Positions 17,191 through 20,565 are shown, numbered from the stretch's first letter. The stretch is 33,952 nt of DNA from Candidatus Poribacteria bacterium (GCA_009843785.1 VYCT01000319.1:1-33952); one strand, 5' to 3'. The notes: generated by a model not told the origin, from the sequence alone. Made by a program: numbers and translations.

Positions 17191-18663
17191 ATGAAAACTT
17201 TATTGAAAAGAAACCTATTTTTCAGTTGCCTTGTATTGTTACTGTGTTTCAGCATAACCGCACTCAGTTATGGGCAAGCCGTGGTCTCCATAGACCCTGC
17301 AAAAGTGGCTTCGCCGGCAGCTGGGGCACAATTCAGCGTGAACATCAAGATAGCCAACGGCAACGGTGTTGCCGGCTATGATGTGACAATCGCGTTTGAT
17401 ACAACGGCATTGGAATATGTTGAGATCAAGAACGCGGATTACCTACCTACAGGTGCATTTGCTGCGCCCCCGCAAGTGTCAGGTAACCGTGTAACGCTTG
17501 CGGCGACCTCGGTATCCGGTGCGGCATCCGCGACGAGCGGCACCTTGGCAGTGCTAACTTTCAAAGTCGTAGCTGCGAAAGCCTCAACACTCCAATTAGT
17601 AGAGGTGATCCTCTCCGACAGTGCTGCGAACGCGTTAGCCGTGACGAAACGAGACAGTGAAGTGGTTGTCGGTGCATCGCTGCCGACGGATCTGAATGGT
17701 GATGGTGCCGTGAACGTTTTGGACCTTGTGCGTGTGGCACAAGACCTCGGTAAGACGGGTTCGCTTGCGAGTGATGTGACCGGTGATGGCAAGGTAAATG
17801 TATTAGATCTTGTGCGTGTGGCACAAGACCTCGGTAAGAGAGTTGGCGGCGGTGGAGCCGTGCCTCCAACGAACGGTGGGAGTACCACGTCCCCTCCGGC
17901 TGTTGATCCGTATAAAAGGATGGAGCTGATTCCTGCTGGCGAGTTCCGTATGGGGAGTAATGAGGGGAACAATGAAAAACCGATTCATTCTGTCTACGTA
18001 GATGCTTTCTACATGGATAAATATGAAGTAACCAATTCCGAATATGCCGAGTTTCTGAATGCGAAAGGCAAACATAGCGATGGGAGTATCACGTGGTTGG
18101 ATATTGGTGCGGATAGGTGCCGTATAGAATATGTGAGTCGTGTCTACCGTGCAAAAGCAGGGTACGAGAACCACCCTGTCGTTGAGGTGAGTTGGTATGG
18201 TGCGATGGCATACTCGGAATGGAAAGGCAAGCGTCTGCCGACAGAAGCGGAATGGGAGAAGGCTGCGCGCGGGGGTTTATCGGGTCTGAAATACCCGTGG
18301 GGCAATGCGATAAATTCCACGAATGCCAACTACAATAGTCATGTTAAGGACACCACGGCGGTAGGTAAATATGCTGCGAATGGATATGGTCTGTTCGACA
18401 TGTCTGGTAACGTATGGGAATGGTGCTTGGACGAGTATAATGGGAATTTCTATTCAGTGTCGCCGGCTCAGAACCCCTTGTCAGGTGCGAATAGCATTCA
18501 GTGGTTATTAGATAACTATACAGGAGTTAATACATCCCGCGTGTTGCGCGGCGGTTCCTGGCCCCATAGTGCACCCCTCGTGCGGGTCGCCAACCGCATC
18601 AGCAATACGCCTACGACTACGAGCTACTACTACGGTTTTCGTTTCGCGAGGGCTGTTGAGTAA
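17191..18663 (+). CDS. DGR target protein: signal peptide, cohesin-like domain, dockerin-like double repeat, C-terminal FGE-sulfatase (C-type-lectin-like fold) domain with variable region
   Basis: VVSIDPAKVASPAAGAQFSVNIKIANGNGVAGYDVTIAFDTTALEYVEIKNADYLPTGAF; TDLNGDGAVNVLDLVRVAQDLGKTGSLASDVTGDGKVNVLDLVRVAQDLGKR; MELIPAGEFRMGSNEGNNEKPIHSVYVDAFYMDKYEVTNSEYAEFL...RLPTEAEWEKAARGG...GNVWEWCLDEY...SRVLRGGSW...GFRFARAVE. Confidence 0.93.
   Translation: MKTLLKRNLFFSCLVLLLCFSITALSYGQAVVSIDPAKVASPAAGAQFSVNIKIANGNGVAGYDVTIAFDTTALEYVEIKNADYLPTGAFAAPPQVSGNRVTLAATSVSGAASATSGTLAVLTFKVVAAKASTLQLVEVILSDSAANALAVTKRDSEVVVGASLPTDLNGDGAVNVLDLVRVAQDLGKTGSLASDVTGDGKVNVLDLVRVAQDLGKRVGGGGAVPPTNGGSTTSPPAVDPYKRMELIPAGEFRMGSNEGNNEKPIHSVYVDAFYMDKYEVTNSEYAEFLNAKGKHSDGSITWLDIGADRCRIEYVSRVYRAKAGYENHPVVEVSWYGAMAYSEWKGKRLPTEAEWEKAARGGLSGLKYPWGNAINSTNANYNSHVKDTTAVGKYAANGYGLFDMSGNVWEWCLDEYNGNFYSVSPAQNPLSGANSIQWLLDNYTGVNTSRVLRGGSWPHSAPLVRVANRISNTPTTTSYYYGFRFARAVE
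17725..17839 (+). repeat. 31-nt direct repeat within the dockerin-like segment
   Basis: cttgtgcgtgtggcacaagacctcggtaaga at 17725-17755 and 17809-17839; encodes LVRVAQDLGK twice. Confidence 0.95.
18535..18657 (+). repeat. DGR variable region (VR), at the 3' end of the target gene
   Basis: Gap-free alignment to 20258-20380: 18 mismatches in 123 nt, 16 at TR adenines (5 A>C, 5 A>G, 6 A>T); the 2 non-A mismatches lie in the last 14 nt. Confidence 0.96.
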
Positions 18664-18696
18664 TTACTTAACTCTTAATTACTTAACTCCTTATTC

Positions 18697-18717
18697 CCCA
18701 CCTGCGTAGCAGGTGGG
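18697..18717 (+). other. GC-rich perfect hairpin downstream of VR (possible DGR target-recognition hairpin)
   Basis: CCCACCTGC-GTA-GCAGGTGGG, 9-bp stem, about 40 nt after the VR end; no T-tract follows. Confidence 0.6.
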
Positions 18718-18785
18718 CGGCCCCAAAAACTTTGTATAACTTAACTTTTAATTACTAATTTAGAATTTACATCTTAGGAGAGTTC

Positions 18786-19133
18786 ATGGCAGCCTCGACG
18801 ACACAAGCCGTTCCTAAACTCTACGATGTGATTCTGTGGTTGATGGGACGCGTGGAAAAGTTTCCACGCTCCCAAAAATTCACACTCGGTGATAGAATCG
18901 TCAATATTTCGCTGGATATATTAGACCTGCTCATCGAAGCCACTTATACCCGTGACCGATTGGCTCTGCTCCGAAAGGCAAATGTACAATTGGAGAAACT
19001 CCGGTATCTAATTCGGATCTGCCATGACTTGAAGTTGCTCTCCGCAAAACAATATGCTTATGTCTCCAATGAGATAAACGAAGCAGGCAAACTGCTCGGC
19101 GGCTGGATTCGGAGCCAGTCAAGTTCATCATGA
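18786..19133 (+). CDS. avd: DGR accessory variability determinant-like four-helix-bundle protein
   Basis: 115 aa all-helical; LGDRIVNISLDILDLLIEATYTRDRLALLRKANVQLEKLRYLIRICHDLKLLSAKQYAYVSNEINEAGKLLGGWIRSQ; ATGA overlap with the RT gene. Confidence 0.9.
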   Translation: MAASTTQAVPKLYDVILWLMGRVEKFPRSQKFTLGDRIVNISLDILDLLIEATYTRDRLALLRKANVQLEKLRYLIRICHDLKLLSAKQYAYVSNEINEAGKLLGGWIRSQSSSS

Positions 19134-20191
19134 AAACGCACAACCGCTTTTTTCAAAAAATCTGTTCGTTTGATAACCTCGTCAGTGCATCACGGAAGGC
19201 ACAGCGCGGCAAGCGTTTTCAAGACACTGTTGCCCGTTTCAACTTTCATCTGGAGAAGGAACTTTACCAATTACAATCGGAATTGCAAACGCAGACGTAT
19301 CGCCCGGGCCCCTATTATGAGTTTCATGTCTATGAGCCGAAGCTACGGAAAATCAGTGCAGCACCCTACCGAGACAGAGTTGTACATCATGCTCTCTGTA
19401 ACCTCATTGAACCGATTTTCGATCCGACGTTCATTTTTGATTCTTATGCGTGTCGGAAAGGCAAAGGGACGCATAAAGCCGTGGATCGGTTCACTGATTT
19501 CAGTCGTAAGAATACCTATGTGCTGAAGTGCGACATCAAAAAATATTTTCCGTCCATTGACCACGAGATCCTTAAAACGCAGTTTCGTCGAAAAATCCGG
19601 GATCCACAAGTCCTGTGGCTCCTGGATCTAATCGTTGACAGCAGCAATCCGCAGGAGTATATCCGTGAATATTTTGAAGGCGATGATCTGCTAACGCCGC
19701 TCAACCGGCGGCGCGGTATTCCGATCGGTAACTTAACAAGCCAGTTCTTTGCAAACATCTACCTCAACGGTTTTGATCATTTTGTCAAAGAGGACCTGAA
19801 GTGCCGCCACTACATCCGCTATATGGACGATTTTGTGGTGCTTGAGACGGATAAGGCATGTCTGCATCAAGTGAAACACGAAATGGAAGATTACTTAGCG
19901 GGGTTGCGTTTGAAGTTACACGTCCATAAGTGCCAAGTTTTCCCTGTCAAAGACGGCACAGATTTCCTGGGCTATCAGGTATTTCCAACGCATCGCAGGC
20001 TACGCCCATCTTCTGTCCGGCGTGCGAGACGGCGGTTGCGACAGTTGAGAGACGATTATGAGTCCGGTAAAGTCTTATGGTCAGATGTGAACCACTCCGT
20101 GCAGAGTTGGCTCGGTCATATCAAGCATGCCGACACTTACGACTTACGCCGTGCGATTTTTTCACAGACTGTTTTTCGCCGTTCAGAATAG
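19130..20191 (+). CDS. DGR reverse transcriptase
   Basis: 353 aa RVT_1; RRGIPIGNLTSQFFANIYLNGFDHFVKED (DGR-type IGxxxSQ) and HYIRYMDDFVVLETD (YMDD catalytic motif). Confidence 0.96.
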   Translation: MKTHNRFFQKICSFDNLVSASRKAQRGKRFQDTVARFNFHLEKELYQLQSELQTQTYRPGPYYEFHVYEPKLRKISAAPYRDRVVHHALCNLIEPIFDPTFIFDSYACRKGKGTHKAVDRFTDFSRKNTYVLKCDIKKYFPSIDHEILKTQFRRKIRDPQVLWLLDLIVDSSNPQEYIREYFEGDDLLTPLNRRRGIPIGNLTSQFFANIYLNGFDHFVKEDLKCRHYIRYMDDFVVLETDKACLHQVKHEMEDYLAGLRLKLHVHKCQVFPVKDGTDFLGYQVFPTHRRLRPSSVRRARRRLRQLRDDYESGKVLWSDVNHSVQSWLGHIKHADTYDLRRAIFSQTVFRRSE

Positions 20192-20257
20192 ATTTCAAAA
20201 GCGTGTCGCTTTCCGCACTGCTTTTTGCGGTCAGCCCACGAGGTTTCAAGCCGAGGT

Positions 20258-20380
20258 TCCCGCGTGTTGCGCGGCGGTTCCTGGCACAATAATGCAACCA
20301 ACGTGCGGGTCGCCAACCGCAACAACAATACGCCAACGAATACGAACAACAACAACGGTTTTCGTTGCGCGAAGACTCTT
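20258..20380 (+). repeat. DGR template repeat (TR), 3' of the RT gene
   Basis: AAC/AAT-rich near-copy of VR; in the VR frame it reads SRVLRGGSWHNNATNVRVANRNNNTPTNTNNNNGFRCAK. Confidence 0.96.
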
Positions 20381-20514
20381 GTCGAAAAACATTTTCGGAT
20401 TGCCAGAGTTGGTATGCCTCCGATGTAGGTGAGTCGTATCAAGTGTGCACCAATGAAGAGTCCAAGGCTTGAGACCTGTGTTCATCTCTCTGAGATGAGC
20501 CGAAGATACAACCC

Positions 20515-20565
20515 GAGGTGTGATAGTGCGTAGGCTTTCTGCCGAATGCCATCACACCTCTTTTT
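20515..20565 (+). terminator. Rho-independent terminator-like hairpin after the TR
   Basis: GAGGTGTGAT (20515-20524) pairs with ATCACACCTC (20551-20560), followed by TTTTT. Confidence 0.7.

What the first reader, a model, noticed from the sequence alone, without database searches (positions are those of the whole stretch)
17191..20565. Complete diversity-generating retroelement with gene order target(VR)-avd-RT-TR
All parts are visible in one stretch: FGE-type target with VR at its 3' end, avd-like gene, RT with IGxxxSQ and YMDD motifs (ATGA-coupled to avd), and a TR downstream of the RT. Over 123 aligned nt the TR has 34 A and 89 non-A positions. Sixteen A positions are substituted in VR (5 to C, 5 to G, 6 to T). 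Only 2 non-A positions differ, both at the 3' end. This adenine-specific, near-even pattern is the hallmark of DGR mutagenic retrohoming. The TR lies 3' of the RT rather than between avd and RT as in the Bordetella phage BPP-1 element.
Basis: partly seen in the sequence, partly recalled or inferred. Interest (0 to 1): 0.95.

Follow-up and report, generated by a model that had tools for sequence, protein, structure and literature searches.

The report
Self-diversifying surface receptor in sponge bacterium
This is a genuine, probably working diversity-generating retroelement: a chromosomal machine in a Candidatus Poribacteria genome that copies a template with random changes at its A bases into the binding site of an exported receptor; the machine type is well known, but the receptor's cohesin-dockerin body and the many scattered targets in a close relative are noteworthy.

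Summary
Confirmed. The window carries a complete diversity-generating retroelement (DGR): target 17191-18663 with VR 18535-18657, avd 18786-19133, RT 19130-20191, TR 20258-20380, and a conserved structured RNA ending in a terminator at about 20565. TR and VR differ at 16/34 A and 2/89 non-A positions (p=5e-9). Comparison refines this: two of the A changes and the final C-to-G are fixed TR/VR landmarks at the 3' end, so the hypermutated core is 14/31 A and 0/76 non-A. The RT groups with the BPP-1 RT, apart from group II-type RTs. In 93 homologous targets the 13 most variable residues of the whole protein are exactly VR codons whose template has A at codon position 1 or 2. TR downstream of RT is the commoner layout among this RT's relatives (29 of 47). 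Host: Candidatus Poribacteria. New member of a known kind; activity itself was not observed.

The parts
17191..18663 (+). DGR target gene, 490 aa: N-terminal signal-like segment, cohesin (residues 37-151), dockerin type I (166-214), FGE-sulfatase/C-type-lectin-like domain (243-487) with VR at its end
   Evidence: Pfam: FGE 2e-62, Cohesin 5e-11, Dockerin_1 1e-8; AlphaFold2 mean pLDDT 82; Foldseek to FGE 1e-21 and to Treponema variable protein 1 (2y3c) 5e-13
18535..18657 (+). Variable repeat (VR); hypermutated core 18535-18641
   Evidence: 14/31 core A substituted, 0/76 non-A
18642..18657 (+). Fixed 3' end of VR (IMH-like), differing from the TR at three landmark bases
   Evidence: TR A/A/C against VR G/G/G at positions 116/118/121 in 7 TRs and 27 VRs
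18655..18717 (+). Post-VR target element: near-palindrome GTTGAGTAATTACTTAAC (18655-18672) and hairpin 18697-18705/18709-18717, loop GTA, starting 39 nt past VR
   Evidence: Hairpin sequence occurs exactly twice in the genome, once after each VR; hairpin invariant or nearly so after 8 VRs of 5 genomes
18786..19133 (+). avd, accessory variability determinant, 115 aa
   Evidence: NCBIfam NF033474 114.8 bits, cut-off 80; Pfam bAvd 1e-21
19130..20191 (+). DGR reverse transcriptase, 353 aa, IGNLTSQ and YMDD
   Evidence: phmmer to BPP-1 RT 8ub7 1e-63; tree; 39% identity to BPP-1 brt
20258..20380 (+). Template repeat (TR)
   Evidence: 81-94% identical to the TRs of six relatives
20381..20565 (+). Conserved structured 3' part of the template RNA, ending in a terminator hairpin 20515-20560 and T run
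   Evidence: 20400-20565 is 90-93% identical in five relatives and 80% in G032, while RT third codon positions are only 52-62% identical; folding z-score -3.5; consensus fold
15393..16013 (+). Neighbour: lipoprotein-like cohesin-domain gene; possible surface partner, link inferred
   Evidence: Pfam Cohesin 6e-12
16220..17029 (+). Neighbour: cohesin-domain gene with FlgD-Ig / T9SS-type C-terminus; possible surface partner, link inferred
   Evidence: Pfam Cohesin 5e-10, FlgD_ig 4e-10; TIGR04183 26.5 bits, cut-off 23

Best explanation
A chromosomal diversity-generating retroelement of a Candidatus Poribacteria bacterium. The template RNA (TR plus a conserved structured tail ending at a terminator) is copied by the RT with Avd into cDNA with errors at A. 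The cDNA replaces the VR at the 3' end of the target gene, with the direction set by base differences at the 3' end and helped by the hairpin after the VR. This re-randomises about 13-17 residues of an FGE-fold, C-type-lectin-like domain that lacks the FGE catalytic cysteines, on an exported protein that also carries cohesin and dockerin modules. The product is most likely a secreted or cell-surface binding protein with a changeable specificity. Shown: parts, A-specific pattern, RT and Avd identity, conserved RNA, conserved target element, variability pattern in relatives. Inferred: mutagenic retrohoming itself, export, cohesin-dockerin docking, the ligand.
For: A-only substitutions, p=5e-9. 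RT in the DGR clade with BPP-1. Avd above its curated cut-off. In three species the cis VR carries its own template's private non-A bases (core non-A mismatches 0/76, 2/75, 0/74), so templates have overwritten VRs since those species split. RT codons changed in relatives are mainly synonymous (119 synonymous, 36 non-synonymous against G003), so the RT is kept functional. The 13 most variable residues among 93 homologues are template-A codons. Core template codons cannot mutate to stops; the single one that can lies in the fixed 3' end. Post-VR hairpin and post-TR RNA conserved.
Against: No population reads or same-species strains were available (best metagenome RT 63% identical), so current activity is not seen. 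VR codon 485 carries a private Cys-to-Phe change at a residue kept in 90 of 92 homologues. The hairpin loop (GTA) departs from the phage consensus GRNA of PMC3240598. Many relatives have no DGR RT.
Confidence: 0.95

Rival explanations
1. A silent or recently dead DGR: the VR pattern records past retrohoming, and the element is now decaying, as in several relatives.
For: Decayed cassettes are common here: own C276 (avd relic with stop), G027 (RT truncated), G005 (VRs but no RT). The cis VR has a private Cys485Phe change.
Against: avd, RT and TR are intact in the window; RT change is mainly synonymous; the cis VR core matches every non-A base of the present TR, lineage-specific ones included, whereas the C276 VR keeps ancestral bases.
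Confidence: 0.12
2. Ordinary diversifying selection plus gene conversion among FGE paralogues, without A-mutagenic reverse transcription.
For: FGE paralogues are numerous in the genome, and lectin sites can evolve fast.
Against: Substitutions sit at template A and almost nowhere else, in several genomes and in 24 of 26 VR copies of G064 at p<1e-3; codons without template A stay conserved within the same loops (mean entropy 0.81 against 3.49 bits); RT and Avd are adjacent.
Confidence: 0.02
3. The RT belongs to a group II intron, retron or defence RT, and the repeat pair is incidental.
For: The highest NCBIfam hit by name is a group II RT/maturase model, 152.6 bits.
Against: Below that model's cut-off of 300; far stronger match to the BPP-1 RT; the tree excludes it from group II-type RTs with 100% support; 47 of 61 RT relatives tested have A-biased TR/VR pairs.
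Confidence: 0.01

Closest known systems
Bordetella phage BPP-1 DGR (mtd-avd-TR-brt)
   Same: Target with VR at its 3' end, avd, RT, A-specific TR-to-VR differences, 3' landing-site differences between TR and VR, hairpin after the VR (PMC3240598)
   Different: TR downstream of the RT, chromosomal housekeeping neighbourhood, FGE-type target with cohesin and dockerin, hairpin loop GTA instead of GRNA and 39 nt past the VR
Treponema denticola variable protein 1 (TvpA, 2y3c)
   Same: FGE-type C-type-lectin fold as DGR target; sequence match 7e-11 and fold match 5e-13
   Different: Here cohesin and dockerin modules precede the lectin domain
Cellular DGRs with remote targets: Thiohalocapsa PB-PSB1 (PMC10907252) and cyanobacteria including Trichodesmium (PMC7517822, PMC8867640)
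   Same: Remote or trans VRs, intragenomic duplication of targets, kinase-lectin fusions (seen here in relative G064)
   Different: In Poribacteria many targets begin with signal-peptide or lipoprotein-like segments; decayed copies keep avd or the post-TR piece; G064 has about 26 VRs for one RT and one TR, while Thiohalocapsa has 15 targets in nine DGR loci and Trichodesmium 18 loci for two DGR RTs

Membership tests
Diversity-generating retroelement | TR/VR pair whose differences lie at template adenines (the survey PMC8144416 uses at least 75%) | tested here: met
   16/18 = 89%; core 14/14
Diversity-generating retroelement | RT of the DGR clade with IGxxxSQ-type motif | tested here: met
   Tree with BPP-1, 100% split from group II-type RTs; motif
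Diversity-generating retroelement | Accessory protein Avd | tested here: met
   NF033474 114.8 bits, cut-off 80
Diversity-generating retroelement | VR in the C-terminal ligand-binding region of a C-type-lectin-like target | tested here: met
   FGE domain; fold match to TvpA
Diversity-generating retroelement | 3' differences between VR (IMH) and TR (IMH*) | tested here: met
   Three landmark positions in 7 TRs against 27 VRs; function not tested
Diversity-generating retroelement | Hairpin/cruciform after the VR, 7-10 bp GC-rich stem, 4-nt GRNA loop, 4-34 bp away (phage DGRs, PMC3240598) | tested here: inconclusive
   9-bp stem conserved after 8 VRs, but loop GTA and distance 39 nt; G064 cis has 8 bp with loop GTAA
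Diversity-generating retroelement | Mutagenic retrohoming observed | not testable with these tools
   No reads or strains of the species
Formylglycine-generating enzyme | Catalytic cysteine pair of the CxxxxC active-site loop | tested here: not met
   Alignment to 6muj and others: loop SYLCHDSYC aligned with SWPHSA-PL, no cysteine
Cohesin-dockerin (cellulosome-type) protein | Cohesin and dockerin type I domains over curated cut-offs | tested here: met
   43.3 and 35.7 bits; 19 cohesin and 52 dockerin matches in the genome
Cohesin-dockerin (cellulosome-type) protein | Physical cohesin-dockerin binding | not testable with these tools
   Needs a protein binding assay
Group II intron RT or retron | RT over the curated cut-off of these models, or grouping with them in a tree | tested here: not met
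   152.6 of 300 and 51.7 of 235 bits; tree against group II-type RTs; retrons were not in the tree
Prophage-borne DGR | Phage structural genes around the element | tested here: not met
   The flanking genes scanned are metabolic, regulatory or repeat proteins (RNase PH, Ham1, biotin carboxylase, NAPRTase, sigma factor)

The most novel reading that the evidence does not exclude
Poribacterial symbionts keep a genome-wide, RT-diversified repertoire of exported lectin-like receptors, some built on cohesin-dockerin display, fed by one RT and one template acting in trans on up to about 26 targets per genome, used to recognise changing partners such as sponge host, neighbours or phage.
Probability: 0.3. 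Interest if true: 0.75.

Novelty: new member of a known kind. Interest (0 to 1): 0.5.

Why it matters
It places a complete DGR on the chromosome of Candidatus Poribacteria, a phylum known as sponge symbionts; only one open-access paper held here contains both terms, and it is about cold-seep viruses. The diversified protein combines a randomised lectin site with cohesin and dockerin, a combination I found in no held paper. The genus offers intact, eroded and dead copies side by side, and relative G064 offers about 26 VR copies behind one template, so questions about DGR spread, trans targeting, template erosion and death can be tested by comparison.

Tried and rejected
Rfam scan of the window: no match. 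No tRNA. The metagenome scan for same-species DGRs gave at best 63% RT identity, so population variation could not be measured. The first AlphaFold2 model from 26 diverse targets was unusable (pLDDT 43) and was replaced by one on 93 homologues (pLDDT 82); pTM is only 0.53, so relative domain placement is not trusted and exposure of variable residues was not computed. My first RT tree had wrongly oriented outgroup loci and was rebuilt. Covariation of the terminator stem is only suggestive with 7 sequences (41 of 500 shuffles as good). Hairpin presence in G064 did not clearly separate clean from drifted VRs, so I make no claim that it is required. The idea that TR position 3' of the RT is unusual was rejected. 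PDB search with Avd found nothing.

Full report
Observation. Over 123 ungapped nt, 16 of 34 template A positions and 2 of 89 others differ (Fisher p=5e-9). It is the longest repeat pair in that region, and an A-tolerant scan of the 6.17-Mb genome finds just one other comparable copy.

Identity of the proteins. avd passes the curated Avd model (114.8 bits, cut-off 80). The RT matches the BPP-1 DGR RT best among solved structures (8ub7, 1.3e-63). In a tree of 39 DGR-type and 13 group II-type RTs it sits in the DGR clade with BPP-1, separated by a fully supported branch. Of 61 RT relatives examined with my own pair finder, 47 have an A-biased TR/VR pair; the TR is 3' of the RT in 29 and 5' in 18. 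The gene order is therefore ordinary for this RT group.

The target. It is 490 aa: N-terminal signal-like segment, cohesin, dockerin type I, then an FGE-sulfatase domain. An AlphaFold2 model (mean pLDDT 82) matches FGE structures and Treponema variable protein 1. The FGE catalytic cysteine loop is replaced by hypervariable positions, so the domain is read as a binding scaffold, not an FGE enzyme. Two cohesin-domain genes lie directly upstream; a link to the target's dockerin is inference.

Variation in relatives. A protein search gave over 80 homologues with the same three domains among its best 120, the named ones from Candidatus Poribacteria. Across an alignment of 93 sequences the 13 highest-entropy residues of the whole protein are all VR codons with A at codon position 1 or 2 in the window's TR. 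Mean entropy is 3.49 bits for the 12 AAN codons, 2.74 for 5 codons with one such A, and 0.81 for 18 codons with none. These proteins come from many genomes, so this is a test by relatives, not by a population.

Correcting the count. Seven templates and 27 VRs of the family show near-fixed differences at positions 116, 118 and 121. Three of the window's 18 differences are therefore landmarks of the 3' landing site, like IMH and IMH* of BPP-1. The core has 14 A changes and no other. In three species the core of the cis VR carries the private non-A bases of its own template (0/76, 2/75 and 0/74 non-A mismatches), which shows that templates have overwritten VRs since these species split.

Second target. 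Contig C276 of the same genome has a lipoprotein-like FGE gene (2172-3317) with a VR (3189-3311): 19/34 A and 7/89 non-A differences. It keeps ancestral template bases where the present TR has changed, so it was probably last overwritten earlier. It is followed by an avd relic with a stop. The genome's only other copy of the post-VR hairpin is there.

Regulatory parts. The element after the VR, with hairpin CCCACCTGC-GTA-GCAGGTGGG, is conserved after 8 VRs in 5 genomes; in G064 the cis copy has a different stem, CGATCTGC-GTAA-GCAGATCG, at a similar place. BPP-1 needs such a hairpin for efficient homing (PMC3240598). The non-coding RNA after the TR is 90-93% identical in five of six relatives and 80% in G032, while RT third codon positions are 52-62% identical. 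It folds better than shuffles (z=-3.5) and ends in a terminator.

Evolution. The block shared across species is 17918-20565: FGE domain, VR, hairpin, avd, RT, TR, RNA tail. N-termini of targets change: cohesin-dockerin, lipoprotein, another N-terminal segment with dockerin, LRR, protein kinase. Full-length close RTs occur in 6 genomes of the family (the window's included) and a more distant one in G061, of 87 genomes of the class; VR-like copies are wider. G027 and G032 templates have lost A preferentially (10/36 against 7/87, p=0.006; 13/36 against 9/87, p=0.001), as if mutated copies had returned to the template. G064 has one RT, one TR and 26 VR-like copies, 24 with clear A bias.

Setting. 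The window's other genes are chromosomal housekeeping and repeat proteins, with no phage genes among those scanned.

Judgement. Membership in the DGR family is met on every feature that could be tested except that the hairpin loop and spacing depart from the phage consensus; activity could not be tested. Interest is moderate for the element itself and higher for the family around it.

Noticed in passing
own genome contig C276 (L286):2172-3828: Second, remote VR (3189-3311) in a lipoprotein-like FGE gene, with the same post-VR hairpin and an avd relic carrying a stop; no RT or TR found there.
   Followed up: yes
G064 C1 (L180-L186, L280-L284): Relative with one RT, one TR and 26 VR-like copies across a 5.5-Mb contig; pooled core 455/780 A against 165/2002 non-A changes; fusions with protein kinase, LRR and dockerin.
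   Followed up: partly
L144:10285-10407 (G027) and L143:10471-10590 (G032): Template repeats that have lost A preferentially; the RT is truncated in G027. Suggests self-targeting or VR-to-TR conversion.
   Followed up: partly
L151:8164-8757 (G027), L159:387-625 (G011), L150:779-870 (G002), L140:13948-14041 (G003), L141:7612-7804 (G020): Relic pieces of the cassette, chiefly the post-TR RNA; in L151 an avd fragment is joined almost directly to the post-TR piece, as after deletion of RT and TR.
   Followed up: partly
L145, L147 (G005): Single-contig genome without a DGR RT still holds VR-like copies, two with the intact hairpin: orphaned targets.
   Followed up: partly
window 18643-18645: Codon 485 is TTC (Phe) against TGC (Cys) in the TR and in 90 of 92 homologues: private change near the fixed 3' end of the VR.
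   Followed up: no
window 13947-14340: Roughly 390-nt stretch with 78-84% identical matches near DGRs or their relics in G003, G005 and G027; only partial weak copies elsewhere in the own genome.
   Followed up: partly
window 28597-30213: AAA-like ATPase with a PD-(D/E)XK-type C-terminus; homologues lie near the DGR or its relics in G003, G020 and G027.
   Followed up: no
window 16733-17030: FlgD-Ig / T9SS-type sorting C-terminus, 53 DNA hits in the genome, suggesting a T9SS-like export route.
   Followed up: no
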